In this document: positions 20,738-56,694 of the stretch, piece after piece
How the letters are laid out: the number at the start of each line of letters is the position of its first letter
Numbering within the stretch: the stretch's first letter is position 1
Program-made: the position numbers and the translations under genes
NCBI GenBank assembly: GCA_947179485.1
Contig: OX359249.1
Span: forward strand, 620,001-684,000
DNA: 64,000 nucleotides
Origin: Allacma fusca
Lineage: Eukaryota > Arthropoda > Collembola > Symphypleona > Sminthuridae
Reading direction: 5' to 3'
Notes under the pieces: generated by a model
What the model was told of the DNA's origin: nothing
What the model saw: only the letters and a program-made list of their open reading frames with translations
The model's database searches: none

Positions 20738-20873
20738 CTACGGACCAGCCGTACCGGCCTGTACGTAGGGGCCTCCCTCCATGAAGTCAATATCATACTC
20801 AACGTAGATATCAAAATATATTCCCCTGAGATCCCCCCAATGAGGAGACTCACTGGAATACCAATAGTTGGAA
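20738..20873 (-). other. Possible coding exon of unknown identity in copy A (low confidence)
   Basis: On the minus strand a good acceptor (cctttcttacag) precedes a 44-codon open frame ending in TAG, rich in Tyr, Asp and Gly (for example GIYFDIYVEYDIDFMEGG). The equivalent in copy B (28743-28611) keeps the frame through a 3-nt length difference. A possible upstream partner on the minus strand lies around 21436-21560. No family was recognised and other frames are also open here, so this may be chance. Confidence 0.2.
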
Positions 20874-24460: not shown

Positions 24461-25792
24461 GGGAGTGGTACATAAAATATTTTATTTCCCCCAGTTTGTA
24501 GCAAATTATTTTCCAGATTTTCTAAAATTTACTTCATTGACCTGGATAAATATTTGAGGTTGCAGGGATGAATACCGTGAAGTAAAGTCGGTATTTTTAG
24601 AATGTAAAGGACCTGTGAAACATGAAACAGGGTTTTTATTGATACAAAATTTTCGATGGGTTTCTCCTTAAAATAGCTGCAACAGTCTATATGTGCATTT
24701 CGTGACCTTATGGTAATCTGACCAAAATCATTAGTGTTCTTCCCAGTGACATCACATGATTTGTAAAACATTCAGCACACCAAACCTTTCTGTTCACCCG
24801 TTATCGTGGCAACAAACTAGAGCATCTCGGGCGGTTAAAATTTACGGGTAAGCCCGCAAAAAGCCCGGCCCGCACGGGCTTCGAGCGGGTACGGGTAAAG
24901 ATTATTACGTTTGACGGGTTACGGGCGGGTACGGTCTTTTCATCGCGGTTAAAAAAGACCGTGAAAGCCCGTAAAAGCCCGTGAGAAATTCCATTAGTTG
25001 TGAATGCAGGAGCAGCGGTTGTGAATGTACATAGACTTGAACGAATTTCAGACGTTTGCAATTTTAGCTTTCAAACAAACTAAGGCTTGGTGTACGATAG
25101 AGCATCACCCCGTGGGATATTTTAGGCCCGTGCCCGTCTGTACGACTGTTAATAAAATAACAAAGGCAGGTATGCAAGAAAACTTTTCTTCTTATTTAGT
25201 AAGTTTGATTTCGCTCTTCATCACTGTGGAAAATTCCATTTACTCTAGAAGATGAATCCTGCTAGTAGTTCAAGTATTTGTAATAAGAATCCAGAAGTTA
25301 ACATTGTAATAAATTCAAGAACGCCACCAGAAGTGCTTACCAAAGCCGAAATAGCAGCATAAGTATTGCCTTCTTAATAAACAAGGTAGTTTAACGACTG
25401 TATATGTAACAGTCAAGAACACCAATATTTTAAAATACAGTTTTTCAGTATTTAAGATGTATGGTATTTGCGGGCGGGCTACGGGCTTTTTCGATAAACA
25501 TTAATTTCGGGCCGGGCGGGTACGGGTAAAACGTTACGAGCTTCGGGCGGGCACGGGCCTAAAATATCCCACGGGGTGATGCTCTACAACATACACAAGA
25601 ACACTTCATATATCATCGGAAATCTAAAGCATGAACAGATTGACATTCTAAGAAAATCTTGACATTGCTTCACCTTTTTTGAATCCCGTGGCCTCAAATA
25701 TTAACCAGGTCAATGAAATAAATTTGTGATAATCGGAACTAAATTTGCCACAAACTTAAGAGAACAAACATTTTTTGTCACTCCCTTTTGTG
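24461..25792. mobile_element. Older inverted-repeat element in copy A, interrupted by a hAT insertion
   Basis: The left arm (24461-24592) and right arm (25668-25792) are diverged inverted repeats. The left contains cattgacctggataaatatttgagg; the right, read in reverse, contains cattgacctgg then ttaatatttgagg. Both carry gtgaag/gtgaagc after that and ggcaaatt or agcaaatt before it. The hAT element at 24818-25586 sits inside, so this element is the older one. There is no coding capacity. Confidence 0.6.
24818..25586. mobile_element. Non-autonomous hAT transposon, copy A (769 bp)
   Basis: The terminal inverted repeats are TAGAGCATC at the left and GATGCTCTA at the right, fitting the hAT start consensus YARNG. 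Flanking 8-bp sequences are caacaaac (24810-24817) and caacatac (25587-25594), a target site duplication with one mismatch. Subterminal regions are packed with CGGGTACGGGTAAA and CGGGCGGG motifs in opposite orientations, typical of hAT ends. No transposase frame is present, so it is non-autonomous. About 39 bp of the right end recur inside in inverted orientation (from 25098: TAGAGCATCACCCCGTGGG), suggesting a rearranged or composite element. Confidence 0.85.
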
Positions 25793-27213
25793 GACAAGGA
25801 CCGGCGGTAAAATGATTATGGTCACCTTGTTTCAATACCAAATCGATTCTTCATAATTACATGGAAATCACGTTTACCTCTCTTTTGGACTGATCATACC
25901 AGACTCAAATGAATCTCCATCTTTTTGTAAGGTCCGCATTTTACATAGCCATTACAGGGGCCAGATCTTCCATGACAAAATCCACAATGATCAAAGACCA
26001 GAAATGCTTTCTGTTTCGAGCCTTCCTCAGTTTCGCTCCTGAGACTTGAATATATTATTCCTTGTATAGTTTATACGTGTACTTGTAATCACCCTTTACA
26101 TTCTTTACCTGCATTACTAAACAAAATCTTCTACAGGAAATATCATATCCTTAAACCAAAAACTTGAAGTAATTTTGCTCACAATCAGTCTCTGAATGCA
26201 CAGAAAAGTTACGGTACTGGTTTTTTCTTGAAGGACAAGAAGCACCGGATATCCTGTCAAGCTTAACATTTTTAGATGTCTTTGTAGCTGAAAATCAGTG
26301 TAAGACTCAAACGTGGAAACATTCCATTTCAGCGATTTTTTACCTCTTCAACTTCTGATTGATTTAAGTTCCCCCAGTAACGTATTACGGATCAGATTTT
26401 ATTTCCGGTCTGTTTGACTCTGGAGTGCTACTACATCATTTTTTGCAAATATAATTTGAGCTTCCAAGTAATGAACGTTTTCAGTAGGGAACTTTTGCAG
26501 GCCGTCTCATATGCAGTAACAATAAAGAGGCTTTCCTTTGTTGGTTTATTTGGTTCCTGCATAGTAATACACATTTATTTATACAAGCTGTAAGTAAAAA
26601 TTTAGACATAAGACACGAAACTGAGAAGAGTAAAGATCAAAGCACCCGTTAATCGGAACTTGAAAGGATACAACTATACCACAATAACCTCAAGTTCCTC
26701 TCATCCCAGCATTATAAGCTCCACCTATATTGAGCCAATGAAGCTCAGCAACTTGAACACTCCCGGTCTACAACCTAACTTCCTCTCCTGCTATCAAAGC
26801 TCGCATTGTCACTAAGCCAATAGCTCCATCTAATTTCCTTCTACAATATGCACAAACTAGCTCCTCATTTTACAAGAGAAACATGGGTTTCTGATCATTA
26901 CCTCTATATAAGTTATTCCTGAAATTAAAAGTCGCTTGCTTCCGAGCATTAGACCGATATCTCCGGCATAAAAAGCACCTTTCGGGGCACTGGATAACCG
27001 CGCAACACAATCCGCGCGCAGCGCTGGGGTTTTACTCTTTTTCCCAAACCTGTTACTTAACCCGTTTTACCTTCGACCGGTCAACTCTTACCTCTTTCCG
27101 CCCAGGACCTGCTACCCTAAATTACAGTAACTCTCCGAATAAAATACTTTGCTCCTGCAACGGGCCTTTAGTCCAAATTACCCAATCCCCTTACTCTACC
27201 ATATTGACACCAT

Positions 27214-27232: not shown

Positions 27233-28610
27233 ACTTCAGAGAGAGTCCTTCCTTGTAAATTGTCCCACTACCATTAAAATCATTGGAACCAGTGTAATTA
27301 AAGTAATTGAATACTTCGACGTTCTTGTCTTTGAGAATCTGACTGTCTTTCGGAAATCCCGTTAAAATAGGAGTAATAATAATTGTCCTATAGTTGGCGT
27401 TTAGGTAGCGTTAGCTAAAGTTAAAAACGTTTCATTACGAGGTTGCAGAGATCTTGCTCTCATAAACATCCCTTGTAGTGACAATGTTATATTTTTGATT
27501 ATCAGTAATTATAAACGGACATTCTCCCAGGACTCACACCTAACAAATCTGACCCTTAAACTTACGCCTTCATTATTCCTGTTCCCGTGTGCGCCAGTCA
27601 GAGCCATGTTGCTGCTAACTATGTATTGAATTACAGTATTAGAGTTGAACATTTATTGACCATTGCACTGCTTCCAACCTGAGCACGAAATGAGGCAGGA
27701 GAGACTTCTTTTCTGACCAGGGAGTGAAAATGTGGAATGCCGGGGAGTTGACATATGCAAATATAACTCGATAAAAATACAATTTTGTCTGCGTTTTCCT
27801 TAAGCGCAACTTCATGTGAGCAATTACCCCTGCCTAAAAAAGTAATATGCAAAAGTATATACTTAAACACAGTAAACAATAACCATATTCCAGATTTAGC
27901 GTTACAAACTCACAATCACAATACTTATGCATCGATGGAAATTATTTAGTAAAAATTGCAAAAATAAATCCAACAAATCCCAATCTATATGATTTAACAC
28001 TTCAAACCTCACTTAATCATTATGATTGTCCTGTTCAAGTTGGCAGTAGCCTTCTTCTTTAAAAACAGTCATCTTCACCTTTATGGAGTAATCTCAGTGG
28101 AAAAAGTCATAAATATTTGGGGAAATAATTATATACAAACTTCCTCAACCTTAATACTTGTGACAGATTTCTAGTCCCCATCTTCCTTTTTGACACATGA
28201 AAGTAAACAATTAACCTGGTCCTGGTCGTGACTTCAACTTCAATAAAAATATGGTAGCTAAGCTGGTGTGCTCAAGGATTGTGTTTAGCTGACGATGGCA
28301 CTTCTGTCTCGTATTAAGTCACTGGCCCTAATGTGAACGTGACTGTGTAAACATTAAATACTAGATTTGGTCAGTTGTTAAGCTTTGACCTTGACATTAT
28401 TATTGTTTCATCTGTGTTGACTCTGTTAAAATTCCGAGAAGACTCGGGAGTCGGACCCCTTTATTGTACCTCCTCATCCCGTCTTTCTTCAAGCGAGGTT
28501 CGATACGTATGTATGTATGCACAATTAGTGTATCACCATATCTCTACCTCTCATCTCATACTTACCTCTCATATTTAATATTAAGGTCAATCGAAGTACA
28601 ATTGACAAAA

Positions 28611-28743
28611 CTACGGACCATTGCATGCCTGTACGTAGGGGCCTCCCTCCATGAAGTCAATATCATACTCAACATAGATATGAAAAAATATTCCCCTGAG
28701 ATCCCCCCAATGAGGAGACTCACTGGAATACCAATAGTTGGAA
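28611..28743 (-). other. Copy B counterpart of the possible exon at 20738-20873 (low confidence)
   Basis: The same acceptor and minus-strand frame as in copy A are kept, but with 43 codons. Relative to copy A the encoded residues YFD become FFH, and VQAGTAGP becomes VQACNGP through a replaced segment 3 nt shorter. Identity is unknown. Confidence 0.2.
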
Positions 28744-30874
28744 CTGTAAGAAAGGAAAAAAGGAGGATGTGAAGGTCGTTGTTGGAGTAACTATTGAGAA
28801 GGTTGTCGTACTGCCGAGAGAAGTAATAAGTAAATGGCTCAAAACGGGTTTTCCATTTCACTCTACTCTCCAGCTTGTGCTTCTCAATTACTGCTCTCCC
28901 GGTGAAATTTCTTAAGAGCTATGATCCTATTAATGCACCATGTTCTGTGGAGGTTTCCAGAATCATTCCTTCCAGCTAATCCTCTCCTTCCCTTCTGGTG
29001 TAATTTCGTGGAAAGTTGAGAGAGAACAGGATTCTAAAGAATAGTTTTGTGGTGGGCTCAAGTTCAAAGTTGTGATTCTTTTGTTGTTATGAGTGAGTGG
29101 TTAGATATAAGAGATTGATTCAATTTGATCCCTGGGAACTAAAAATTTTATATCCTTTAAGAATGGAGACAATAAATATTTTGATGCTTTTTTATTTATT
29201 CCAGACTTGAAGCATATTAACTTGCAATGCTCCATGCTGCTCCGTTTTTACTCTTTGAAGTACCTGGAACTGGGAGACGCCCTAGCCCTCTCATCTCGCA
29301 TCCCTGTTTTCACTTATGTATTACTTTCTCCATTACATCCGTTGGGTGAGGAGTGTACGCGGTATCGTGCCTGTAGTTACTTCCGTAGCAACACTCCCGG
29401 GAATTGTAGTAGTAGTCATTCCACCGACACATTTAACCGGGAATGAGAATCCTGTTTTTTAATTCTGATACTTTGGTATGTTCTACATTGCGTGCTCCTA
29501 CAGTGGGAGTGTACACGTAATACACATTTCATAATAATAATTTTATTATTATAGTTAACTGTAGGAAATATGCGTAACCATCTGGACTAAAAAAATACAT
29601 TTTAGTAGAGTGTGGATGTTAATAAATAAATCCCAATATAATATGAACGCTCTGTCCTTTGAGCTTGTCCCAGAGTTTCTGAGCTATAAGGTTGGAACGA
29701 ATTTTGGGAAATCTGAAAGAAAATTTGCTATGAAATGGGGAACCGAATAAATTTCACCATTGTTCCTTCCACGGGCTAGGGAGACGGAGGTTTTAAGGTA
29801 CCCTGTCTCCAACAATCTCAAGGATATATTTTTTTTATCTATATACATTTTTTAATCTTGAAGACTTTGAATTCTATGATATTTTATAAGTTTGCAGATA
29901 AGAGAATCCTGCTATGGTTTTCCTTCATATTGAAGATCCATTGCAGCTTCGAGTTCTCTCATTGTTCAGTTTGACGCTTTACAAAACCTCGCTCTGGCGA
30001 ATAAACGGATAATATTTTGTAACCATCCTGTAAATGGTGGGTATCATTCGTAAAGTATTTCTTACTTTGGGAAAAAATTTGGATTTATACGAGTGGTTAA
30101 CCGCTCCTTACAGCTATCATCGGTATTGATTCGCTACATTTTTAAATCAGGGTTTTTCAGTCCGTTTTAGGTCAGTGCAGCCCTCTGTTGATATCTTGTT
30201 GTCCGTGGACACAATAACTCAAAAACTTCTCCACTGCATTCAATCAAAGGCTAAGGTGTTCCTCATAATAAAAGCTCGACTGAGTTTGATTTTGATAGAG
30301 ATTGGTGCAGTAGTTTCTGAGAAAACGATAATAATTTTATTATTGTCCATTTCTAAAAATGTTGTGGAAAAATGTGGGAAGAACAGATCGGGGGATACAA
30401 ATGATTGTACAATAGTGTCGTATAGCCATCTTTAGACTATTTAATTAACGAATAAGCGAAAACAAATGGCCAAGGATAATTTTTATCTTTATAAAGGACG
30501 TTAACATGAATGAAGAATGCCTGTTGTAATAAATGTCTAATTATTGAACTACTGCTGCACTGCCCCTTCGAGTACACTCCATTTTGTTACATGGTAAATC
30601 CTTGAGACATTTTCCTATAAGCCTCCAGTGTTAACTGACGAGGAATCCTTTGAGACAGTACTCTTGGCAATCTCTTCTAAATAATTTATTAACATTGGTG
30701 TAACGTTTTAGTTCGTGTTTTTCTAGACTTATTCTCTTGCTAGCACATAGTAATGCCAGTTATCTCAAAATTAGTTTTACAAGACAATTAAAGCGTACTC
30801 ACTTCACTGTCACTGCGTTTAGCTTATTGATTACTTTCTTACCTTGATGGCTTGCCTGTTTCAATGGTGCCTAA

Positions 30875-31461
30875 TAGGGTTGCCAATGGCGATATAGCGA
30901 TATGGCGAGACGCTATAATTGCAAATATTGCCAAATTTACTGGCGATATTTCAGGCAATAATTATTACAAATTTTGTCAAGAATATTGGGCAACGATCTG
31001 GGTTAATAGATTACGAGTTTTAATGCGAAGTTGTAATGATCGCGAATGAAAATGGAGAAATTCTTGTCAGCGTGTATCTTTCTCTGCATTGCGTCAATCC
31101 AACATTTAAATGAGCGTGAGTGAGTAATAAGTAGTAAATGTGACAGAGTAACTAATGTGTGCGTCCTTGCATCAATTATATGTGTATACATTAGTGATTT
31201 TACCAGTTCAGTGTATTTTACCTTAATGCTTTATTAGTTTTTAACTATTAGAGCTGTAGAAAACTCTTTGTATATCGTCTGGTTTTGTAAATTGCAAGCC
31301 ACTTTTGAAAAGCTAACAGCGTTTTGGTGTACACATATTTTGTTTTTGTTACTTTTGATTCGGGATTATCATTATTAAAGAAAGGCTTCATGGTCGATAT
31401 AGCGCCAAAACTGGCTTTAGTGAGACTCAGAAAGCCGATATGAGCAAAATGGCAATCTTTA
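30875..31461. mobile_element. Possible MITE in copy B (hAT-like termini, tentative)
   Basis: Copy B equivalent of 22992-23575. Its right end, GGCAATCTTTA, is better preserved than in copy A (GGTCTCTA) and is what suggests an inverted repeat with the left end. No target duplication is clear. Confidence 0.35.
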
Positions 31462-32346
31462 GCACGCCTAATACTTACGTAATAATGGTTAATTATTAAA
31501 ACATTCCAATTCCTTAAACATGAGAATCACTTCTTGCTTATTTCCTATTTTATTACGAAGATGCTTTGTTTTTTACTGATTCGCGAAAATAAGAATTTCC
31601 AAAAATACGATAAACTACATACGTTTAATTGTTGCGCAACTATTCAACTATATTTGTATCTTCTGTAAAAGTATCTGTCAAAACCATGTTAGTCAAATAT
31701 GTCATTCAACAGTGGCATATTCAAAGTGTGTAAATGCAATTAGCTGACCTTGACTAACTTTAATTGGGTCTCTATGGTTAAAGGAACCTTTATAGTTACC
31801 TTTTTTATCTTCAGTGCTGAAAGTTATTTTGTTTTATACATTTCATTTCTTCTAAATATTCCACGTTACTGGTATAGTCCTTTCCACACTGGATTCTGTG
31901 CCCGCCACAACGACAATGGACAATAGTGGGTTAATAACAATTCACCCTAGTAAGCTCTCTTCTTTAATCGAGGACGGGGGGTTTAAGAAATACGGAATGC
32001 CACCTGGCCAGCTCCTTATCTCAGTCAGAACAAAGAGAGTGGGACCCTATCTTCTATTTTCTGTGAACTTGAATCTGTAACAATAAAATCTATACAATCT
32101 CGGAGGTTTGCATTCTGCATCTTCCGGTACTTAAGTAGTAGTAGTGAGGGAAAGCATAGATTTTATTCTACACCTGTCATCGTGCGCTGTTTACCTAATG
32201 GCAGTACTAACATCAGTGCTTTTACAGAAAGTAATAAATACAACATATTCAGCCATAGTTATTTTTACTTGATAACACAATTGGTAAAGGTTTTTAACAT
32301 TGTTCATTCATATCTGTGCCACGATTCTAGCCTTCTCTTCCGCTGG

Positions 32347-33678
32347 GGGAGTGGTACATAAAATATTTTATTTCCCCCAGTTTGTAGCAAATTATTTTCC
32401 AGATTTTCTAAAATTTACTTCATTGACCTGGATAAATATTTGAGGTCGCAGGGATGAATACCGTGAAGTAAAGTCGGTATTTTTAGAATGTAAAGGACCT
32501 GTGAAACATGAAACAGGGTTTTTATTGATACAAAATTTTCGATGGGTTTCTCCTTAAAATAGCTGCAACAGTCTATATGTGCATTTCGTAACCTTATGGT
32601 AATCTGACCAAAATCATTAGTGTTCTTCCCAGTGACATCACATGATTTGTAAAACATTCAGCACACCAAACCTTTCTGTTCACCCGTTATCGTGGCAACA
32701 AACTAGAGCATCTCGGGCGGTTAAAATTTACGGGTAAGCCCGCAAAAAGCCCGGCCCGCACGGGCTTCGAGCGGGTACGGGTAAAGATTATTACGTTTGA
32801 CGGGTTACGGGCGGGTACGGTCTTTTCATCGCGGTTAAAAAAGACCGTGAAAGCCCGTAAAAGCCCGTGAGAAATTCCATTAGTTGTGAATGCAGGAGCA
32901 GCGGTTGTGAATGTACATAGACTTGAACGAATTTCAGACGTTTGCAATTTTAGCTTTCAAACAAACTAAGGCTTGGTGTACGATAGAGCATCACCCCGTG
33001 GGATATTTTAGGCCCGTGCCCGTCTGTACGACTGTTAATAAAATAACAAAGGCAGGTATGCAAGAAAACTTTTCTTCTTATTTAGTAAGTTTGATTTCGC
33101 TCTTCATCACTGTGGAAAATTCCATTTACTCTAGAAGATGAATCCTGCTAGTAGTTCAAGTATTTGTAATAAGAATCCAGAAGTTAACATTGTAATAAAT
33201 TCAAGAACGCCACCAGAAGTGCTTACCAAAGCCGAAATAGCAGCATAAGTATTGCCTTCTTAATAAACAAGGTAGTTTAACGACTGTATATGTAACAGTC
33301 AAGAACACCAATATTTTAAAATACAGTTTTTCAGTATTTAAGATGTATGGTATTTGCGGGCGGGCTACGGGCTTTTTCGATAAACATTAATTTCGGGCCG
33401 GGCGGGTACGGGTAAAACGTTACGAGCTTCGGGCGGGCACGGGCCTAAAATATCCCACGGGGTGATGCTCTACAACATACACAAGAACACTTCATATATC
33501 ATCGGAAATCTAAAGCATGAACAGATTGACATTCTAAGAAAATCTTGACATTGCTTCACCTTTTTTGAATCCCGTGGCCTCAAATATTAACCAGGTCAAT
33601 GAAATAAATTTGTGATAATCGGAACTAAATTTGCCACAAACTTAAGAGAACAAACATTTTTTGTCACTCCCTTTTGTG
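32347..33678. mobile_element. Older inverted-repeat element in copy B, interrupted by a hAT insertion
   Basis: The arms at 32347-32478 and 33554-33678 are the copy B equivalents of those at 24461-24592 and 25668-25792. They surround the hAT element at 32704-33472. Confidence 0.6.
32704..33472. mobile_element. Non-autonomous hAT transposon, copy B (769 bp)
   Basis: Same length, TAGAGCATC termini and imperfect 8-bp flanks as 24818-25586. The two copies arose by the segmental duplication, not by separate insertions. Confidence 0.85.
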
Positions 33679-35099
33679 GACAAGGACCGGCGGTAAAATG
33701 ATTATGGTCACCTTGTTTCAATACCAAATCGATTCTTCATAATTACATGGAAATCACGTTTACCTCTCTTTTGGACTGATCATACCAGACTCAAATGAAT
33801 CTCCATCTTTTTGTAAGGTCCGCATTTTACATAGCCATTACAGGGGCCAGATCTTCCATGACAAAATCCACAATGATCAAAGACCAGAAATGCTTTCTGT
33901 TTCGAGCCTTCCTCAGTTTCGCTCCTGAGACTTGAATATATTATTCCTTGTATAGTTTATACGTGTACTTGTAATCACCCTTTACATTCTTTACCTGCAT
34001 TACTAAACAAAATCTTCTACAGGAAATATCATATCCTTAAACCAAAAACTTGAAGTAATTTTGCTCACAATCAGTCTCTGAATGCACAGAAAAGTTACGG
34101 TACTGGTTTTTTCTTGAAGGACAAGAAGCACCGGATATCCTGTCAAGCTTAACATTTTTAGATGTCTTTGTAGCTGAAAATCAGTGTAAGACTCAAACGT
34201 GGAAACATTCCATTTCAGCGATTTTTTACCTCTTCAACTTCTGATTGATTTAAGTTCCCCCAGTAACGTATTACGGATCAGATTTTATTTCCGGTCTGTT
34301 TGACTCTGGAGTGCTACTACATCATTTTTTGCAAATATAATTTGAGCTTCCAAGTAATGAACGTTTTCAGTAGGGAACTTTTGCAGGCCGTCTCATATGC
34401 AGTAACAATAAAGAGGCTTTCCTTTGTTGGTTTATTTGGTTCCTGCATAGTAATACACATTTATTTATACAAGCTGTAAGTAAAAATTTAGACATAAGAC
34501 ACGAAACTGAGAAGAGTAAAGATCAAAGCACCTGTTAATCGGAACTTGAAAGGATACACGTATACCACAATAACCTCAAGTTCCTCTCATCCCAGCATTA
34601 TAAGCTCCACCTATATTGAGCCAATGAAGCTCAGCAACTTGAACACTCCCGGTCTACAACCTAACTTCCTCTCCTGCTATCAAAGCTCGCATTGTCACTA
34701 AGCCAATAGCTCCATCTAATTTCCTTCTACAATATGCACAAACTAGCTCCTCATTTTACAAGAGAAACATGGGTTTCTGATCATTACCTCTATATAAGTT
34801 ATTCCTGAAATTAAAAGTCGCTTGCTTCCGAGCATTAGACCGATATCTCCGGCATAAAAAGCACCTTTCGGGGCACTGGATAACCGCGCAACACAATCCG
34901 CGCGCAGCGCTGGGGTTTTACTCTTTTTCCCAAACCTGTTACTTAACCCGTTTTACCTTCGACCGGTCAACTCTTACCTCTTTCCGCCCAGGACCTGCTA
35001 CCCTAAATTACAGTAACTCTCCGAATAAAATACTTTGCTCCTGCAACGGGCCTTTAGTCCAAATTACCCAATCCCCTTACTCTACCATATTGACACCAT

Positions 35100-41700: not shown

Positions 41701-44700
41701 CACTCCACGCAGAGGACTGCCAAGTGCATCGTAATTGCTCATCCGCACTCACCTGCTCATCTCTGGCTCTCTCGTTCTCTGTCGAGACGAGGGAGACGGA
41801 GAATGAGTGAGGAGTGGGAGGAAGAAAGTTCTTACCGATGCCCGAGAGGGTCGCCTCCTCGGAGCCACAATTGAATCCTAGGTTGACTTGCATGCATGAG
41901 GAGGAGTGCATGGTCGGCTTGCCTGTAAGAAAATAAGATACAGATGAGTGTTCACCCTTCTTTCCTCAACAAGTGCAAACAAAGCATTAGGAGCGGAAGG
42001 AAGGGAAGAGAGAGAGGTATGTCGGAGAGTGGTACGAAGGAGGGTGGTGAGAGCCAGGTACGACTTCCACCACTTGTTCCCTGCACTCTCTCCGCCACGG
42101 AGACACTCGGACAAAAGCAGAACAGGAGCAGCGTGAGGCTCATCAACTCTTCCACAATGATGACGGGAAAGAGAGGAGGACGAGGGAGAGAGTGGCTAGG
42201 CGTCACTCGTACAAGTACAAGCGGCAGCGTGGTCATGGCAACCGAGGGAAACAAAGCACACAGAGACGACATGTTCACACCATGCTCTTTTTTCCCACGG
42301 AATTCTCTGAATTCGCTTGGAGAAAGCATGTCAGCGTACACACTAAGGGATGATTTGAAGGAAGTAGATAGCTTGTAGGAATGCATGGGTGTAAAGAAAA
42401 GGAGTAAGAGCGATTCTGAGGATGAGTTCCATGAGTCTTGTGAGTAAGACAGAGGAGTGATGGGATTGTTGACGGGTGAGAAGAAGACTCACCGAACTCC
42501 AGTTGGTCACCGAAAGCTCCCACACGCCCAATCTCATGAAGGCGCTGAGGCTGCCGTGGAGCTGACCCTCTCTCCGCTCCTTGAAACAAACAATCAACAT
42601 GCCAGATTCAAATGCAAAGCAATTAGGAGAGCGGGTAATTTGAGGAGAGAGCGGAGTTTAATGGTCAGCAAGTAATTCAACACCGAATAACTTTGGAGGA
42701 CTGCAATGATGCAAGGACTACTGCCACTAATTACATTAATGAGCGGAGGAGGAGGACATGAAGCATGAGAAATAGTGCGGATGCTTACCTGCCAATCTGA
42801 GAGCAGACATCCGCTGGAACTCGGGTTCCTGGAGCCACTTCCACATTCGACGGAAAGTCTCTCGACCGGATTTGAGCTTGGACCAGGGCTTGGGGTTACG
42901 GAGAAGGTCGGACAGCGTTCCTTGGGAGCGACAGAGAACTCGTTGTGCGAAGATGGCTTGTGGGATGCTGTAGCGCTTGAGCTCGGCACTGATTCGAGCC
43001 GCCAACTCCTTCGTGTTGATTTCCTCGAGCTCACCGGACCCGGAGATGGACGAACCGCCACTGTTGCCTGAGCCAGCAGGTGTAGACGTGAGGTTGACAT
43101 TCGGTCCGCCGCCGCCTCCCAGCGTCGTAGCCGTTTTGATGGCCATTGAGCCTGAGTTGACGACGTGTGTCACATGCCCACTCGTCACATTGCCCGTATG
43201 ACTAATGTGAGGATGTGACGATGACGAGTGTCCGGAATGGGCCGTGATCACGGCTTGCGTTGTCAGACTCGCTCCTGCAGGCATACCCGTGCTGGTTACG
43301 AGCGACGAACCTGACATGACACTAGTCATGGACATGGCACTTGACGACGGAGGTGACGACGCGTTCCTATGGGTCACCACGACGGCTGTGGCTCCGGCTA
43401 GGGGCGGCGAGTTGTCGGGTGACGATGAGTGCGGACTGAGAATGGCGAGTCCGTTGACTCCAGGCATGGACGATGTGAGTGCCACTCCAGTGGCAACCCC
43501 AAAGCCCAAGTGGTGTGGCGGAGGTGACCCGTGTGTGCCTACGGATCCCGGTCCTGGTGGACTCAGTGAAGGACTATGGCTATGTGACCCACCTACTCCG
43601 TGTAGACTCTGGCGGAGGTCACGCGGCTGACTAGAGGACTGCGGCGTATGAGGATTGGGAGTACCACTGCCTGCACTGCCCCCACCGCCACTCTCATAAC
43701 TGTCATAACCGTTGGGTGAGAGGGCCTTGGGTGGGGAGGACAGACCGTTTTGACTGTAATGCTGTGGCGAGATGGATGGGGAGGGTTGGTGAGAAAGACC
43801 GAGTCCGAGACCGTTGGTGGGAGAGGAATAATGGGGTGGGGACATGCCCATGGAGGAGAGCTTTTCGTAGGAGTATGGTGACGTGACACCCATTCCCAGG
43901 TTCGCCAGACCATTGTTGTGCATGACAGTGAAAGAGCCCGCCACGTTGCCCGCGTGTCCGTACGAGAACTTGTCTGACATGGTGGAGATTGGCGGGAGGG
44001 GCTGGAGGGGTGTCAGCGTGGCGTACTGGGAGCTCGCCTGACCCGGACTGAACCCTTGCGGTGAGAGACGTCCGTTGACAGAACTTAAGGCTTGATACCC
44101 GTGCTCCTGCTGCAAGCCACGGAATTCTGAAGCGTCGATCATGCTTTGCACACTCACTGAGATCCCACTCGAAGGACTCAGCTTCGGACTGAGCAATTGA
44201 GCCTCGCTCGAGTCCTCGTTCCCTCCTGGCACTATGACAGTCAATGTCGTCGCTCCGTCGCCGCTCTTATTTCCGCACTCGTCCTCCAAGTCCTCATCTC
44301 GCTCCGAATCGTTTTCCTGATGGTGCTGGTGCTGTTGGTGCTGTTGGTGGTGATGGTGCTGTTGTTGAGTTTGTTGTTGTTGTTGTTGTTGGTGGTGGTG
44401 GTGAGGATGACTGTGATGATGGTTCTGGGGATGTTGAGAATGGTGAGGAGGATGGTGGTGGGGATGGTGGTGAGAGGAGGGAGCTGAGGAGGATGTGGAG
44501 TGGTGGTGGTTGTTATTGTTGTTGTTGTTTTGGTTGGACTCGTTGCTTGCCGAGACGGACAAGTCCTCTGCGGCAGTCTGGAGTTCTTCCTTGACCTGGA
44601 TGCGGTGTAAGGTGAGCGTGTGTGAGCTGGCAGAGAGAGCTCCATGTGAAGTGACCACGACAACTCGACTCACGGCTGGAGGACGGGCAGTGAGGACTCC

Positions 44701-44913
44701 GGCAGAAAACACTTCCCCGGCCCCATGAGTGTGAACGGAGTTGACGGGAGTTTGTGCCAGCACGGCCTGGTCCAGGACAACTCCGTGCGACGACGCAGAT
44801 GGCGAGTGCTGAGCGTCTCCGTCCCCAACCAACACTCCACTATGACCGTATACTTGGACTCCATGCCCATCTCCTCTCAATTCTTCCTCACTCATCTCAC
44901 TCAGGTTGTCCAT
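38747..44913 (-). CDS. onecut: ONECUT-family transcription factor (CUT domain plus homeodomain; HNF6-like)
   Basis: This is a nuclear DNA-binding protein of 860 aa. Three minus-strand exons: 44913-42789, 40123-40011 and 39091-38747 (stop TGA at 38749-38747). The junction codons join to give LRLAACKRKE as in the family. The single CUT domain is at about 629-710 (LEEINTKELAARISAELKRY, then FAQRVLCRSQGTLSDLLR, and NPKPWSKLKSGRETFRRMW). The homeodomain is at about 726-785 (RLVFTDLQRRTLQAIFK, then LGLEPTTVGNFFMNARRR), with the Phe48/Met50 pair typical of ONECUT. The first 600 residues are low complexity: poly-Asn, His/Gln repeats (about residues 128-205), then Ser/Pro/Gly-rich stretches. The ATG at 44913 begins MDNLSEMSEEEL. 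The 2.67 kb first intron and 0.92 kb second intron contain no other gene. Family members act in neuronal, photoreceptor or liver-type differentiation. The long open frames on the opposite strand over exon 1 are shadows. Confidence 0.97.
44325..44528 (-). repeat. Imperfect trinucleotide tracts encoding His/Gln/Asn runs in onecut exon 1
   Basis: The minus strand reads mostly CAC/CAT/CAG/CAA/AAC codons and encodes long His, Gln and Asn runs. On + it appears as ggtggtg and gttgttg arrays. Such tracts vary in length between alleles. Confidence 0.9.
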
Positions 44914-47224
44914 GGTCCACAAGAGCCGAACAAGGGCCACAGCCTTCGATCAACACTGCACTGTCAACCCATGCACTGCAACAATTCCCACAGCAACAAT
45001 GGAACACAATCAGCCCGACTAGCCCACAATTACGAGAGAAATCCGAGAGCCCAGCACAAAACCAAAGTCACTTGTTCGTCCATGTTCGAGTACTATCTCT
45101 GCCCTCCCAACTGCGCACCCTCCAGCGCAAGTTCGTATCCCGACTACAGCCAGGCATTCCCTCCATCGTCCCGCGAACACAGCAAACGGACCGATTCCAG
45201 CAGAAAGAAGCAGTAGCAGCAGCTGCCTCTACTCTCTCTCTCCCTAACTCTCTCTCTCTCTCTCTCTCTCTTCACTCTCTCGCTTACTCGCTTACTCGCT
45301 CACTTGCTCCCGTCCACGACTCTCTCCACCAACTACTCTCTCCCCATCATCCATCTCTCCACTGGGCTCAGTCAACAAAGGCAACGAACACCTGGCGAAC
45401 CGGACGAACCCTTCTCCAGGCAACACGTGCCTACTCACAACCACTCCAGCCCGCATAGGTCCGTACACGAGCAGTGTGGGAATGCCGAGCTCAGGTTGCC
45501 CCATAAATCCCACACAGCCTCTAGTAAGTAACTATAGGCAGTCTCATTCAGTCTCTCATTGATAAGTGGGCTGAGATGTGCGGTTGATCCGAGCTCACTC
45601 AAACGTCCAACTTAGGCCAGGTGTGCTAGCCCCACTTCCTGCTCAACCACCAGGCCTCTCTGTATCCCGTAGTCTCCCACAATCATCGCTCATAATCAAC
45701 AACCAACATTCAACAAATAAGTCATGAATGCAATCTGAAAAAAATATTTTTCCGCTCACTCTCCAATCTCCACTACTTCCTTCTCCCATCCTTCATTTCT
45801 ACTAGTAGTCCCAGTCCCAGGTCACAGTCCTCCTATTAACCCAGTCAGCAATGTCAGCATAGCATAGGAGCTCTCAATAAACAAATTATTATTTTATAGC
45901 TCCTCTTCTACAGTCCACTGCCTAGTGTGTCTAAACTCTCTTCAACTCTTCTTCTCCCGTCTTACATAGAACGTTGCGTGTCAGGAGGAGAAAACTCAAC
46001 TCTTTAACTCTAACTCATTACGCTTTCCTTCGCTTCATTTCCTTTGACTCCTCACCAACACCGAACACAGTAAGACTGTAATTTAATATATTCGCTGGAG
46101 TGCGAGTGATCACTCTCTGCTCTCTCATTGACTCTCCCAACCTGCACGGTCGTCTTCATGCGTGAATAACTTGCCCGATCCATATGCATTTCAAATCCTT
46201 CATATACCTCATTTTCATGCAAAAGTGCAGTAGCAAAAGAATTGATGTGCTCTGTCCTTTCACTGGGAATTTCAGTGCGAGAGTGGAAGTCCGATGCGTC
46301 CTGTGTCCGCTTGACTCCGGTCAGTCTCACTACGAATAGCCTTCCAATATTCTTTGTTGTTTCTTCATTGTCTCCTGCCGAGTCAAAAGCAAAACATGGG
46401 ACAAGTTTCAGGGATAGAAAGTAATGCAGAATAATAATTATAAATTATTATTAGCCCTAGTCAAATACAGGAAGGCAAACAGGCGAATTAATTTTTTCTA
46501 ACTAGTAATTGCACCGAGTTCAAAATTAGGAAAAATTAATTACTACGTATTATTATTTATCAGAATACTAGAGAACGCAAAGGCGAAAAAAGATTTCAAT
46601 GCATAGCACTATTAGCGAGTGGACGCTCAAGAGCAATCAGGAATAAGCGTTGTGATAAGTCTCGGTAGCGCAATTCCAATGTCTCTGCTTCCACAGCATT
46701 CTTCGTTTTGGGTGACCTCTGACCTGAAGGAGGTCTGAGTGTGTGTGACTGGCTTGGAATTTGAATGGAGCTGATTGTGAGAGGACTTCGAGGGATGAAG
46801 CAATTCATACTGAACCTAACCTCAGTCTTCTGGAGCAAGAGAGGGACGAATTTATTCAAGCTTACGTAAATTCGCCACTGCTTGCTCTACTCATCTCATA
46901 TGCGATCAGTTGTGAATTGTAATGCACCGGTGAAGAGGCAGAGTCTAGAAGTGCAATTATTATTAATTATCTGAGAGTAAAGGCAAAAAGAAGGATTTAT
47001 GTGCCTGTTGCTGTGAAAGCAATGCGAGTTGATAGTGTTTATTTGAGAGAATTTTATTTGATTTTGTGGAGAACATCAATTTTGTAAAATAAATTTGGTT
47101 AAAAGTGTAACATGGTTGTAGGAATTGCTCACTTTTCTTCTTGACTGCCAATATGTAGAATCTATATTTAAGTGAATTTTGAGTCCGTGATTAAATTAAA
47201 GGGAAACTTTTTGATTACCACCAG
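44914..47224. other. Divergent intergenic region between onecut and the 47225 gene
   Basis: The region should carry the onecut 5' UTR and promoter on the left and the promoter of the + strand gene on the right. The left third is pyrimidine-rich with a (CT)n run at 45249-45272, which creates long spurious + frames (44754-45458). No exon or RNA gene was recognised. An in-frame TAA at 47192-47194 closes the frame upstream of the ATG at 47225. Confidence 0.5.
45249..45272. repeat. (CT)n microsatellite
   Basis: A pure CT run upstream of onecut, inside a wider pyrimidine-rich block (about 45190-45360). Confidence 0.95.
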
Positions 47225-48529
47225 ATGAATCGTGAGATGACCCACGACATTCATCGGGTGAGGGAGCTGAGCGCCCTACTAGAAGAGCGTCGGCGCTATT
47301 TTGATGGCCAGTTGGGCGAAGTGTATCGGAATGCAGGGGTGAGCAGTCCAAGCGCCTCGCTCCCGAGGCTCCGCGGCCTTGACTCTCCCCCAGTGTCAGC
47401 AAGCGTGTCGGAGTCGAATATGACGGACATAAGTCTTCTAGGGAGCGATGTCACGACGGCGGGTTCCATGGACTTGGGTTCAGCTTGCAGTGCTAGGAGC
47501 TACAGTGTCTTTGCAGATGATGAGTGCTCGGTTGCAGACTCCTACGAGTTTGCCGAGACCAAGGCCCGTCTTGGAAGGAACTGGAGCTCATCGACACTTC
47601 TAGGAGCAGCCAATAATGCATCGAGCAAGGCAAGGCTGGGTAACTTACCCAAAGACTCCATCCACAATGAAGTGATGCGCGCTGCGGATTTGGAGAAGAA
47701 GCTCAAGTCCCGACGATCAAGTCTGCCGCTCGCTCTGGAAACGAGTCTTCGACGCCCGGTAAACAAGACGTTCACTGGTAATTGGCGCAAGGACAGGAAG
47801 GATGAAGGGAGGAAAAGCCTGGCTTATAAGTACACTCTGGCGGCAAGAAACAAAAGTTACTCGGATTCCTCGGATCCAGAGGACTCTCAGGGACGCTTCC
47901 CCTCCGATACGCGCAAGGGTAGCGGGGATCTTTTCAGCATGACTGACACCCTGGTCAAGACCCGTAAGTATGAGGTAGCCAATGATCTAAAAAGGGCACT
48001 GGAACTACCAAGTCTCAGTCTACTCCGACATGGTAAGGCAAGTGTGAAGTCCTTGGACCGTGCCAATTGGGACGGTGACATTGTGGGAGGGGCTCCTCGA
48101 CTCAAAACCAAGTTCTCCCCGAGAAGGTCATTAGGGTCTAAGTCAGCGTCTTCCACCCTGGCTCCTTATGCCGACTATTCCCCCAGGTCATCTTTGTCCA
48201 CCCTAAGCGGCTCCTACCCACGAATTGCATTTACTTCTCTGGAGAAGGTGTACCGGGAGGATGGGGATAAGTCCAAGTATGGTCTGCATGGTCACCTGCT
48301 CCTGAAGCCTCTTCCTAAGATGGACTTGTTCCCGGAACAGGGTCATCTTGAGCCGGACTACAGTCATGACTTTCGCTACTTGTCCTTGCTTGACGCTCTA
48401 GTCCCTGTATTTCAGCCTGGAAATTCTTGGAAGCCCCCATCGTCCCATCAGTCTGACCAGATGCTCTTAAGTATTCATCCATACAGACCACAGCCGGACA
48501 CCTCTCTCAATCGCTTCTTCCCTTCCTGA
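47225..48529 (+). CDS. Intronless gene for an unrecognised 434-aa Ser-rich protein
   Basis: The open frame runs from ATG at 47225 to TGA at 48527-48529, with a stop in frame 33 nt upstream and two overlapping AATAAA signals about 70 nt downstream. It therefore looks like a complete single-exon coding sequence. A 5' UTR intron ending in ccaccag is possible. The N-terminus (about residues 5-35) is a charged helix (VRELSALLEERRRYFDGQL). The rest is Ser/Arg/Lys-rich and probably disordered, with an acidic patch FADDECSVADSYEFAE (96-111), a twice-used KARLG motif, basic RRSS sites and several SLS/SST clusters. The C-terminus is more hydrophobic (RYLSLLDALVPVFQPG). There is no signal peptide, membrane segment or domain I recognise. 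Codon use and the lack of long rival frames support real coding. Function unknown; a cytoskeletal or scaffold role would be a guess. Confidence 0.8.
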   Translation: MNREMTHDIHRVRELSALLEERRRYFDGQLGEVYRNAGVSSPSASLPRLRGLDSPPVSASVSESNMTDISLLGSDVTTAGSMDLGSACSARSYSVFADDECSVADSYEFAETKARLGRNWSSSTLLGAANNASSKARLGNLPKDSIHNEVMRAADLEKKLKSRRSSLPLALETSLRRPVNKTFTGNWRKDRKDEGRKSLAYKYTLAARNKSYSDSSDPEDSQGRFPSDTRKGSGDLFSMTDTLVKTRKYEVANDLKRALELPSLSLLRHGKASVKSLDRANWDGDIVGGAPRLKTKFSPRRSLGSKSASSTLAPYADYSPRSSLSTLSGSYPRIAFTSLEKVYREDGDKSKYGLHGHLLLKPLPKMDLFPEQGHLEPDYSHDFRYLSLLDALVPVFQPGNSWKPPSSHQSDQMLLSIHPYRPQPDTSLNRFFPS

Positions 48530-48597: not shown

Positions 48598-48607
48598 AAT
48601 AAATAAA
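48598..48607 (+). terminator. Poly(A) signal of the 47225 gene
   Basis: The sequence AATAAATAAA holds two overlapping AATAAA hexamers about 70 nt after the stop codon. Confidence 0.7.
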
Positions 48608-52641: not shown

Positions 52642-53673
52642 TATATAATTATGAGTGTGTTTTAGAGTTGGGATGAGAGACGGAGGAGGAAAGGACAGAC
52701 TGACTCCGGCTCTGATTGTGAGTTGGAGTTGGAAATGGGGGAAAAAGGGAAAAGGCCAAGAGGAAAGGACATGATTGGGATTTCGATGGCAAGGCTGGAT
52801 TCTCCTCCGTCACTCAATGACCATTCCTCCTATCTCTCAACAAATCATCACAGAATTAGTCCATTCCGCATTTCCATAGAGAAATATTTGAGCCCAGCAA
52901 CTTTCCAACTTCCAAATTACTCCAAATAGCATGGACATTTATTACCAGCATTTGGGCATGGACTAACTTAGTCTCAAATTTATACTTGACTTAGTTAATG
53001 CTCTCAGCTCACTATCTCAACTCCAACTCCCTCACATCAACACAAATTAAACATTTCTCTCATGTGTTCCATCAACAAGTTCAAGGGCTCATTATTACCG
53101 TCATTATTTCCCACTGAACTCCATTTAAGTCAAATAAACTGACAATATTTTATTATTACTCATTTTTACCTCCCCATTTGCACTCTCCCGAACAATTAAT
53201 TATTAATTTCTGTTGTAAATATAGTAAAAATAAGAATAGGGACTTATTCAAGTGTGCTATTGTCCAGTAAATACATTTTGATAAAAACAAGTTCGTGGTA
53301 GTTGAGGAATTCATAAGGTTAAGGAAATTCAGTATGAGATTTGTTTTGGTTCTGTTGTTTGGAGTGAAATAATAATAATTGTGCCACTATAGTGTTATTT
53401 TGTGAAGGGTAGATGTGTTACATGGAACAGTTACTTGAGTTATTTATTTGAAGGGAATTTGAAGATCTGAGTAAGATTTTTATGTAAATACGTGCATCTT
53501 ATCTAGTAATAATTATTTATCTTCGTGTCCATCGGTCTATGCTTCAAACACCTCGACACTTTAGTAAGTAATGGGCTGTGTGAATGTTTAGAGAGGATTT
53601 TAGTTGAGGAGAGAATTTATATGTAATTCCCTGGTTGTTACAGATGGGTAGATCCTGTTGACCCTTGGTTGAC
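52642..53673. other. Upstream region of the Cos2/KIF27-like gene
   Basis: No exon was recognised. Just before the start codon, ggttgttacag/ATGGGT (53643) is a possible 5' UTR acceptor. The frame leading to the ATG at 53674 then contains a TGA at 53658-53660, so an upstream coding exon could not be joined in frame through it. Confidence 0.45.
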
Positions 53674-56624
53674 ATGAATAGGTTTAATTCGGCTCAGCTG
53701 TCGTCCTTGTCAGGTGAGTGTCATATTTTTGAAGGATAGTTTGGACAGCCGGAATAGTTCCGGGTATCTCTGTTGGTAGTTTATGATGTTAATTATTTGG
53801 ATTTAGACGGAGACTCCGACCAGGTCACGGATATCTCAGACAGCGATGGAGACGTGACGGAGGATGAAGACTCGGACAGAGAGCCAGCTGAAGATGATGA
53901 TGATGAGTCAGATGGGAAAAGTACGCAAGACCTCATTGATCAAGTGGAAGCATCATTTCTGGACCTCCTAGTCCACACCGTGGAACAGGTCCAGAAGAAT
54001 CATGATACTAATATACAAATCCGCATAGAACCTCCGAAAATTTTAACTACCCAGAGTCGGGATGAAGAGACCCAAACGGATGCGAACCACGGAAGCAGTG
54101 TATGTTAATGAACAATATCTTACTTATTCCTACAACAAATTATTCAGTTCGGCGTTATTTTCGCGGTAATTATTCTTATTATTTTGTCTTGCTCATCGAT
54201 TTAATTAAATTAGCAGGATCAGGCCAGTGAAAACGCATCACCAGCAAACGATTCGGAGGAAATACGAAATGAAATTGCATCCTTGCGTGTAGCCAGAGAT
54301 TCCTTGGTTAACCAGAGGAAGGAGGTTGCAGACCGAATGAAGAGAGTAAGATGATTTTTTCACCAAACGATGTATTATGAGATGTCAAAAGATAAATGGG
54401 CGTTTCATTATATTAGGATGTTCCTTTATATTTATTTTCAGAATAATATGAATGGAGACCATAGGGCTGAAGATGAAAAGAAACTTTATGAATTTGAAGA
54501 GGCTATAGAAGCTATTGATTCGGTCATTGAATTTAAAAATGAAGCTATATGTGGAAGGGAATGCATTTTATCCAACTGTGTAGCACCTGGAAGGGTAAGA
54601 AAAATCTAAAAATTGTTATGGGTTAAAATGGCAAAATTATTTTTAGTAGAGTTTAAGTCAGTTACTATTTGCGCAGTTTGAAGTGAACGTATTTTCAGCA
54701 TACTTTGCATGTATCAACTACTCATTAGTATAATCGGAGTACTCAAAGAAGTTTTTGGTTCAAGATAGAGCTTGTCGAATCCTCAGTACGACGGTCAGAC
54801 AAGGAGGCACTTAAAACTGAGAAGCTCAGTATTAATGGTTACATTTTAATGAAGGGCTTGTTTTATAACACCAATAGTTCAGTGGTATTTGAACTCATTC
54901 CTTGGTAGCATTATACAAAGCCCCGTGGGCTCCCTAGGATCTTTGTATGAAATCTGAAGTTAGATTTAAGGAACAGATGATGCCAGAAGAAGCATTTTTA
55001 AATGCTTTTTGAAACTTGATGTAAAACAATCTATGAAAGTAGTTACGCAATGAATATTTTGACGCGTGATGATGAAATGCTCTAGTAGTAATTTTTCATT
55101 ACTTTCTAACCTAGTTTAGTTTAAGAAAAGATGTTCACACGTCAAACCACAAAGACCAAAAAATATATTGACCTTGTGGTTATTTATGCACCGAAGTTTT
55201 GATATTATTGGTTTTCGTCTATTAACTGTGTTTCAGAATGAAGCTGACTTGGTCACCCGCTTAACAAATTTGACGACTCTGGATCTGCAACGTCTTCTTG
55301 TAAAGTACTTTTCCAAAGTGGTAGAAATTCGCTACAGCTCGAAGCGTTTAGAAAAACAAATAGAGGAACTAGAGGTAAGTCTTCAATTTGATTTTTTTCA
55401 AAGAATTAAAATAGTTTTGTATTAGACTAAGTGGTCTACAGAGTGAAATAGTTTTTTATGGGATCTATAGACATATGATTGTTTCTTGGTTTTATAGAGT
55501 AATTGCGAAAATATGGGACTTATGTTGACCAGAAATCAAAAACAAATTAAAGAAATGAATTTACAGTATGAGGCGGTAAGTTCCGTTCCTTACTGTTTCT
55601 TACAACTTATAAAATATTCCATAACCCATTAGAGTGAATAATTATTACTACTTTTTCTTTGTTTGTATTAGCGAATTAAGTTGATCATCGGTCTTTACAA
55701 CAAAAATGCGAGCACTGCCTTAGATGAATACGTGCACATACTCGACAAAAAGTTGTCAGCTGCGTACAAGAGACAGCATGACCTCCAAACTGCACTAACG
55801 GAACTACTTGTTCGTCACAGATACCTAACTAATGGAACAGGTTGGACGCTTGATTTTTTAAAATATTTAACCCTAAACAGGTTATATTCAATATTTGCTA
55901 ACTGAATACTGACTGAGGAAGAAATTAATTACAGTAAATCTGAAGGTCTTATTACTTAGTATTTGTGATTGGAACAGTCAAGTATTAAACTATCCATAAA
56001 ACTAAGCTCATATCTGTAAGTAAAACCTGAAAATGTGTATGTACTCTGAAGCTAAAGTGAATGGTAAGATTTAAATAAGTTTTAACGTTGTCTCCACACT
56101 CCTACGTGCATGATTATGGATAGTTGAGTACAACCCACATTTAGATTCATGTATTACAATTATTAATGAAAGTGTTGTTTTTTTTTCAAGGTAACTTTAA
56201 CTATGCTAATAGCACTAACTGTAAACTAAATAATATTTCTATTTAAATAAATTTTTTAGACTATGATGTCAAACACGTCGTCAAGATGCTAGGAATCGAC
56301 ACTGCTCAGACCGGGCTTAACTGGCGACCAGAAGATAAACCGAAGAAAAAAGCTGACCAAATGGGGGAAATTTCGTCAAATCGTCGCCATGCTCTGGAAT
56401 CCGGATTGGATAGTCAAGGAATTAGTCGTCGGATGAGAGAAGTGTACGAGCATCGACAGACCTCCCACCGCAGTCATCATCACCCGTCGCAGCATCATCA
56501 TCAGCGAGATGTGAATGGGCTTGATATGCAAGAGTCTCATCACGTACCAGTTCAAGAAGTTCGTAGGAAAGGTCGTCAAAAACTCTACATTCAGCCAAGA
56601 TCATCTTCACCTCATCCTCCTTAA
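53674..56624 (+). CDS. Costal-2/KIF7/KIF27-related coiled-coil protein lacking a kinesin motor
   Basis: Eight + strand exons: 53674-53713, 53807-54099, 54217-54345, 54442-54594, 55237-55374, 55498-55575, 55672-55840 and 56260-56624 (TAA). They give 454 aa with perfect phase. Residues 14-60 are very acidic (SDSDGDVTEDEDSDRE, EDDDDESDGK). TQT at 102-104 (DEETQTDA) fits a dynein light chain LC8 motif. From about 130 the protein is coiled coil and matches the C-terminal conserved block of the kinesin-4 relatives KIF7/KIF27/Cos2: EFEEAIEAIDSVIEFKNEAI (171-190) and LLVKYFSKVVEIR (225-237). A weaker coiled coil follows to about 330. The tail is His/Arg-rich (HRSHHHPSQHHHQ) and disordered. Full family members exceed 1000 aa and start with a motor; here the model has none and none is visible upstream. 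The first exon is the least certain; exon 3 has a NAGNAG acceptor. Family members scaffold Hedgehog signalling (Fused/Ci/Gli, cilium tip). A similar role here is inference. Confidence 0.85.
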
Positions 56625-56688: not shown

Positions 56689-56694
56689 AATAAA
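56689..56694 (+). terminator. Poly(A) signal of the Cos2/KIF27-like gene
   Basis: AATAAA lies about 65 nt after the stop codon, followed by AT-rich sequence. Confidence 0.65.

What the first reader, a model, noticed from the sequence alone, without database searches (positions are those of the whole stretch)
53674..56624. Costal-2/KIF7/KIF27 relative that appears to have no kinesin motor
Exons 3-7 match, in order and spacing, the conserved C-terminal coiled-coil block of KIF7/KIF27/Cos2 (DEKKLYEFEEAIEAIDSVIE, LLVKYFSKVVEIR). The protein is only 454 aa, begins with a short acidic N-terminus, and has an in-frame TGA 16 nt before its ATG within the probable first exon. The 5 kb upstream has no open frame with motor motifs. 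A stand-alone tail could act as a Hedgehog-pathway scaffold without motor function, or as a competitor of a full-length paralogue. I am not aware of such a protein being described.
Basis: partly seen in the sequence, partly recalled or inferred. Interest (0 to 1): 0.78.

Follow-up and report, generated by a model that had tools for sequence, protein, structure and literature searches.

The report
Springtail Costal-2/KIF27 tail without motor
A springtail genome carries an intact-looking gene for the tail end of a kinesin used in Hedgehog signalling, but searches of that genome found no matching motor half, which suggests that the motor was lost and only the tail was kept.

Summary
Window 53674-56624 (+) is an eight-exon gene model with seven GT-AG introns, one open frame of 454 aa and an in-frame TGA just before its ATG. 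Its coiled-coil block resembles recalled KIF27 and KIF7 tails (46.6 and 41.2 bits) far more than KIF21A or KIF4A tails (12.4 and 3.9).

Scaffold lengths point to the springtail Allacma fusca, X1. Only one copy of the tail was found. The 134 kb before it are gap-free and hold no motor but that of a separate KIF12-type gene. Genome-wide, Pfam Kinesin finds 23 motor clusters; a KIF27 motor query finds 22 of these and no others. In trees of 22 of them none joins KIF7+KIF27 (UFBoot 100). Hedgehog and a Sufu-domain gene are present.

Best reading: a motor-free, stalk-free descendant of Cos2/KIF27, probably a scaffold. A competing full-length paralogue is not supported. No transcript or relative could be examined; a diverged or unassembled motor, or an unseen first exon, is not excluded.

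The parts
53674..53713 (+). exon 1, ATG and 13 codons plus 1 nt (phase 1 out)
   Evidence: GT donor
53659..53661 (+). in-frame TGA upstream of the ATG; a transcript that keeps exon 1 in this frame cannot carry a motor upstream on the same exon
   Evidence: read
53807..54099 (+). exon 2, acidic low-complexity N-terminal part; the place where an unseen alternative first exon could join
   Evidence: found in the own genome only here
54217..54345 (+). exon 3, start of the coiled-coil block; collinear with KIF27 in the spliced alignment, not significant alone
54442..54594 (+). exon 4, EEAIEAIDSVIEFKNEAI block
55237..55374 (+). exon 5, LLVKYFSKVVEIR block
55498..55575 (+). exon 6, coiled coil, weak alignment
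55672..55840 (+). exon 7, coiled coil, weak alignment (mainly KIF7 in phmmer)
56260..56624 (+). exon 8, His- and Ser-rich C-terminus and stop
56689..56694 (+). AATAAA after the stop (a second at 56764)
48598..48607 (+). AATAAATAAA behind the stop of the upstream + strand ORF (47195-48529); suggests that a neighbouring transcript ends before the tail gene

Best explanation
The gene encodes a motor-free and stalk-free descendant of the Cos2/KIF7/KIF27 kinesin, kept as the only member of its class found in this springtail. Shown by sequence: an open spliced frame with canonical splice sites, homology of its coiled-coil block with the C-terminal block of KIF27/KIF7, one copy found, and no motor of this class found by the searches available. 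Inferred: it forms a coiled-coil dimer and works as a scaffold or adaptor that holds the tail's partners (a Fused/STK36-type kinase the first candidate, since KIF27 binds Fu; perhaps Smoothened as in fly Cos2), in Hedgehog signalling or at the cilium, without walking on or binding microtubules through a motor.
For: Gene model. Homology and class preference: 46.6 bits KIF27, 41.2 KIF7, 12.4 KIF21A, 3.9 KIF4A (tails recalled; the KIF21A one hits Pfam KIF21A at 3.6e-65). One copy found (7 exon matches, all at C5:673806-676621). No N in the window or the 80 kb before it; the only motor in C5:540001-684000 is a KIF12-type gene with its own coil. PF00225: 63 matches in 23 clusters. KIF27 motor query: 61 matches, in 22 of those clusters and nowhere else; the longest high match, 56% over about 195 aa, is a KIF21-type gene. 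Trees of 22 of the 23: KIF7+KIF27 at 0.996 and UFBoot 100 without a genome member. hh and a Sufu-domain gene present. KIF27 binds Fu (passages of PMC3266853).
Against: No transcript was seen, so exon 1 and the start are inferred. The motor search works exon by exon and can miss short or diverged exons: the KIF27 query missed the diverged KIF9-like motor that Pfam found. Fly Cos2 has an atypical motor (recalled); KIF4 and kinesin-14 motors were not recognised either. The published assembly has 744 contigs in 95 scaffolds. A query of the genome with the recalled KIF27 tail did not complete. No relative's genome could be searched, so selection is untested. The Hedgehog role is inference.
Confidence: 0.58

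Rival explanations
1. The gene is an ordinary full-length Cos2/KIF27 whose motor and stalk lie on distant upstream exons joined over a very long intron to the 53807 acceptor; exon 1 is a minor promoter.
For: The acceptor at 53807 is phase 1 and could take another first exon; a motor gene lies on the same strand about 111 kb upstream.
Against: That motor is KIF12-type (48% to recalled KIF12; UFBoot 100) and is followed by its own coil (my reading). No other motor-like or KIF27-stalk-like frame with E below 0.1 in C5:540001-673674. At least a CUT-domain frame on the other strand lies between.
Confidence: 0.1
2. Gene fission or strong divergence: a Cos2-class motor exists elsewhere in the genome but is so diverged or so split by introns that the searches miss it.
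For: Fly Cos2 has an atypical motor (recalled). The KIF27 query missed one of 23 known clusters. KIF4 and kinesin-14 motors were not recognised. The two motif scans recover only 10 and 8 of 23 clusters, and the second does not fit KIF7 and KIF27, which have Ile where it demands Leu.
Against: Pfam Kinesin still found a strongly diverged KIF9-like motor (L037). The KIF27 query brought no cluster beyond those of Pfam.
Confidence: 0.15
3. The motor half is missing from the assembly only (gap, collapsed or absent sequence).
For: 744 contigs in 95 scaffolds, 3.9% BUSCO missing.
Against: No N in the 134 kb before the gene; printed QV 58.7 and k-mer completeness 100%; the loss would have to hit just this motor and stalk.
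Confidence: 0.07
4. A decaying remnant or non-functional fragment of a lost Cos2/KIF27 gene.
For: Loss of motor and stalk; no expression evidence.
Against: Open frame over 8 exons with canonical splice sites, 0 of 2000 shuffles stop-free.
Confidence: 0.06
5. Not of this class: a fragment of another kinesin-4 tail (KIF21 or KIF4), or generic coiled-coil similarity.
For: The recalled KIF27 tail itself touches Pfam's KIF21A-like domain at 18.8 bits (cut-off 28.5), so the block may be shared by all kinesin-4; the gene's block touches it at 10.7 bits. The genome shows no KIF4 motor, so a stray KIF4 tail had to be considered. Reference tails are recalled.
Against: 46.6 and 41.2 bits to KIF27 and KIF7 against 12.4 and 3.9 to KIF21A and KIF4A; Smith-Waterman 173 and 147 against 84 and 67 (shuffle maxima 74, 85, 72, 65). 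29 columns are identical with both KIF27 and KIF7, among them YF, KVV and R of the exon 5 block KYFSKVVEIR.
Confidence: 0.04

Closest known systems
KIF27 (human; annelid and crab orthologues)
   Same: C-terminal block collinear with exons 3-6, the best of four kinesin-4 tails; an acidic stretch also occurs in recalled KIF27
   Different: KIF27 has an N-terminal motor and a long stalk; crab KIF27 is 1369 aa (passages of PMC12155367), annelid KIF27 has the motor (passages of PMC9695228); here 454 aa, no motor, no stalk
KIF7
   Same: same block, 38% over 93 aa to the recalled tail
   Different: motor and the GLI-binding coil (recalled) absent here
Drosophila Costal-2
   Same: arthropod member of the class, itself a scaffold with an atypical motor (recalled)
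   Different: Cos2 keeps a motor domain, to which Ubr3 binds (passages of PMC4873228); not compared by sequence here
KIF21A and KIF4A tails
   Same: kinesin-4 relatives with an alignable tail block
   Different: score far lower against this protein

Membership tests
KIF7/KIF27/Cos2 (kinesin-4) proteins | C-terminal conserved coiled-coil block, closer to KIF27/KIF7 than to KIF21/KIF4 | tested here: met
   (reference tails recalled)
KIF7/KIF27/Cos2 (kinesin-4) proteins | N-terminal kinesin motor domain in the same protein | tested here: not met
   transcript not seen
KIF7/KIF27/Cos2 (kinesin-4) proteins | long coiled-coil stalk between motor and tail | tested here: not met
   no frame in 144 kb matches the recalled KIF27 stalk at E 2.9 or better; the stalk may be poorly conserved, so this test is weak
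KIF7/KIF27/Cos2 (kinesin-4) proteins | a motor of this class anywhere in the genome | tested here: not met
   sensitivity limited
Hedgehog signalling complex | binds Ci/Gli, Fused or Smoothened | not testable with these tools
   only the presence of hh and a Sufu-domain gene was seen; which Frizzled-family match is Smoothened was not resolved
KIF12 (the nearest motor gene) | the tail gene is the 3' end of the KIF12-type gene at C5:557.8-564.4 kb | tested here: not met
   KIF12-type motor and its own coil exon; inferred without transcripts

The most novel reading that the evidence does not exclude
A hexapod with a Hedgehog ligand and Sufu has discarded the Cos2/KIF27 motor and stalk and kept only the tail as a stand-alone gene, which would show that the conserved tail block, not the motor, carries the indispensable function of this class.
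Probability: 0.42. Interest if true: 0.78.

Novelty: new variant of a known kind. Interest (0 to 1): 0.6.

Why it matters
What the motor of Cos2/KIF7/KIF27 contributes, against its scaffold parts, matters for how Hedgehog signalling works. The recalled KIF27 and KIF7 tail blocks reach no Pfam family over its cut-off, and the KIF27 block has no match in the PDB at E up to 0.01. A natural tail-only member, if transcribed and conserved, would be an evolutionary deletion experiment that isolates the tail's function and gives a small 454-residue protein to test.

Tried and rejected
Considered and rejected: (1) the KIF12-type motor about 111 kb upstream as the missing N-terminus. (2) The diverged motor at C9:35.76 Mb as a Cos2 motor: best PDB match KIF9, 3nwn, E 4.6e-20; its place beside KIF9 in the tree is weak (0.66; UFBoot 67). 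(3) The kinesin-4 at C10:34.6 Mb as KIF27: best PDB match 7x4n, and the tree places it with recalled KIF21A. (4) The tail gene as a stray KIF21 or KIF4 tail. (5) Extra hits of the motif scans: L039 and L040 read as DExH helicases, L041, L042 and L043 show no kinesin. (6) That chromosome 1 escapes the search: other families are found there. (7) C1:74.94 Mb as Smoothened: reads more like a Frizzled, left open.

Led nowhere: Rfam, two paper searches without a hit, a motif pattern that I wrote too loosely (1762 matches, not used). A first look at kinesin pieces with a badly seeded profile was replaced. Structure prediction was not attempted, because the spliced protein is not one unbroken translation of the window.

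Full report
What is there. The window is G000:C5:620001-684000 of an assembly of 392,743,791 bases in 91 contigs. C10 is 66,084,411 bases, exactly the scaffold N50 printed for the springtail Allacma fusca qeAllFusc8.1 (section 5 of PMC10427803 read). C5, C8 and C12 agree with X1, chromosome 2 and chromosome 4 to the printed two decimals. C9 (48,059,808) is about 6 kb shorter than the printed N90 scaffold and C1 (81,893,619) about 4 kb shorter than the printed longest scaffold; the paper counts 95 scaffolds and 392,786,974 bp. I take the species to be A. fusca and the window to lie near one end of X1; the tools did not name it.

The gene. Eight exons from 53674 to 56624 on the + strand give 454 aa. 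All seven introns are GT-AG, the frame has no stop before its end, the other frames have 26 and 43, and 0 of 2000 shuffles are stop-free. An in-frame TGA lies at 53659-53661. AATAAA follows at 56689. Pfam-A names no family over its cut-off; the unspliced frame around exon 5 touches DUF4446 at E 0.008, 16.6 bits against a cut-off of 27.4. The PDB gives one chance match at E 1.1.

Homology. Against recalled human KIF27 (about residue 600 on) and a recalled KIF7 tail the protein scores 40.2 and 39.7 bits (phmmer) and 62.0 and 54.7 bits (blastp), with 26% identity over 165 and 38% over 93 residues; Smith-Waterman scores are 194 and 147 against shuffle maxima of 114 and 71 (300 shuffles each) and reversed scores of 84 and 41. 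In a three-way alignment 29 columns are identical. As a blind control, recalled KIF27 from about residue 344 was run against all 6308 open-frame pieces of at least 15 aa in C5:540001-684000, both strands: the two best are the pieces with exons 4 and 5 of this gene (E 0.0031 and 0.0039), the next is at 2.9; exon 3 (E 28, in register) and exon 7 (E 63, out of register) are not significant alone and exon 6 is not listed. So exons 4 and 5 carry the evidence.

Which kinesin-4 tail. The recalled KIF27 tail touches Pfam's KIF21A-like domain below its cut-off (18.8 against 28.5 bits), so the block may be common to kinesin-4 proteins. I therefore compared this gene with four recalled kinesin-4 tails: KIF27 46.6 bits, KIF7 41.2, KIF21A 12.4, KIF4A 3.9; Smith-Waterman 173, 147, 84 and 67 against shuffle maxima of 74, 85, 72 and 65. 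A five-sequence tree puts KIF27+KIF7 and KIF21A+KIF4A on opposite sides (UFBoot 96 each) with the gene between them, which fits a sister of KIF27+KIF7 but does not place it inside. The memory was checked where it could be: 148 of 148 KIF7 motor residues equal PDB 4a14, recalled KIF7 and KIF27 motors are 61% identical, the figure printed in PMC3266853 (passages), and the recalled KIF21A tail hits Pfam KIF21A at 3.6e-65.

No motor nearby. Translations of the three + frames of 39.0-57.8 kb hold no Pfam kinesin. There is no N in the window or in the 80 kb fetched before it, so 134 kb before the gene are gap-free. In the 144 kb stretch the only motor pieces with E below 0.1 are seven pieces of one gene at C5:557.7-563.7 kb. 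It groups with recalled KIF12 at UFBoot 100 and has a coil after the motor (C5:563722-564384, my reading).

No motor elsewhere. PF00225 gives 63 matches at E at most 0.001, which I group into 23 clusters. A recalled KIF27 motor gives 61 matches at E at most 1 in 22 of these clusters and none outside; it misses the diverged motor at C9:35.76 Mb. Its longest high match is 56% over about 195 aa at C10:34.6 Mb; two short pieces of other clusters reach 63% over 73 and 54 aa. The C10:34.6 Mb gene's best PDB match is 7x4n (404 bits), then KIF4 (303), then KIF7 (273), and it joins recalled KIF21A at UFBoot 100. 22 of the 23 clusters entered the trees; one (C10:46741058, about 55 motor residues) was left out. 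KIF7 and KIF27 form a clade (0.996 in FastTree, 100 in IQ-TREE) without any genome motor. Class names for motors other than the KIF21-, KIF12- and KIF9-like ones are my reading of motifs. Limits: the search is per exon; KIF4 and kinesin-14 motors were not recognised, so they are lost or were missed; the motif scans recover 10 of 23 clusters and 8 of 23, so their silence says little. Chromosome 1 shows no motor, but it is searched: 1 of 75 homeodomain matches (150 of 163 candidates scored) and 3 of 14 Frizzled matches lie there.

One copy. The tail protein finds only its own exons, 7 matches at C5:673806-676621; a much diverged second tail could be missed, and the query with the recalled KIF27 tail did not complete. 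There is no sign of the full-length paralogue that the competitor model needs.

Pathway context. A Hedgehog ligand gene (two exon matches, C5:6436024-6459434) and a Sufu-domain gene (two matches near C5:32.04 Mb; the domain also rings in two of 14 control genomes, one over the cut-off) lie on the same chromosome as the tail gene. Frizzled-family genes are present (14 matches); which is Smoothened was not resolved.

How it probably works. The retained part reads as coiled coil between an acidic N-terminus and a His/Ser-rich C-terminus (my reading of the sequence; no structure was predicted). Without a motor it cannot be a microtubule motor. In vertebrates KIF27 binds Fu while KIF7 does not bind Smo or Fu (passages of PMC3266853), so the simplest inferred job is an adaptor for a Fused-type kinase in Hedgehog signalling or cilium building. 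The region that binds GLI in KIF7 lies in the lost stalk (recalled). The fly E3 ligase Ubr3 binds the Cos2 motor domain (passages of PMC4873228), so a motorless form would be expected to escape it. None of these steps was tested.

Prior description. Ten searches of the open-access library were made. Two found nothing, one was for the species (54), and some listings were cut (20 of 83, 20 of 26). No listed title or abstract start describes a tail-only member of this class. Annelid and crab KIF27 are described as motor-bearing or full-length (passages). Most subscription papers and all bioRxiv preprints were outside the library.

Verdict. An intact-looking gene, class assignment good, absence of the motor supported but not proven, function inferred. 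New variant of a known kind; the decisive test is a full-length transcript and the same gene in other springtails.

Noticed in passing
window 19360-27213 and 27233-35099: 7.87 kb direct tandem duplication, 99.3% identical: recent, or an assembly duplication.
   Followed up: partly
G000:C1 (81.9 Mb): The largest chromosome carries 0 of 63 kinesin and 1 of 75 homeodomain matches although it is searched: poor in these two families.
   Followed up: partly
whole genome: No KIF4-type and no kinesin-14 motor was recognised among the 23 motor clusters (my reading); lost, or missed by the exon-wise search.
   Followed up: partly
L017 and L018 (C9:6.70 Mb and C9:15.74 Mb): Two nearly identical Unc-104-like kinesin-3 genes (my reading) with long unbroken frames of 1559 and 1574 aa.
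   Followed up: no
L036 (C8:67.2 Mb): Partial, diverged copy of the motor of L021; looks like a decayed copy.
   Followed up: no
C5:6.4 Mb, C5:32.0 Mb, C5:0.67 Mb: hh, the Sufu-domain gene and the tail gene all lie on the X1-sized chromosome; males of A. fusca lose one copy each of X1 and X2 in early embryos (PMC10427803 passages).
   Followed up: no
window 47195-48529 (+) and 42736-44949 (-): A 444-codon open frame without Pfam match, and a CUT-domain (Onecut-like) frame next to it.
   Followed up: no
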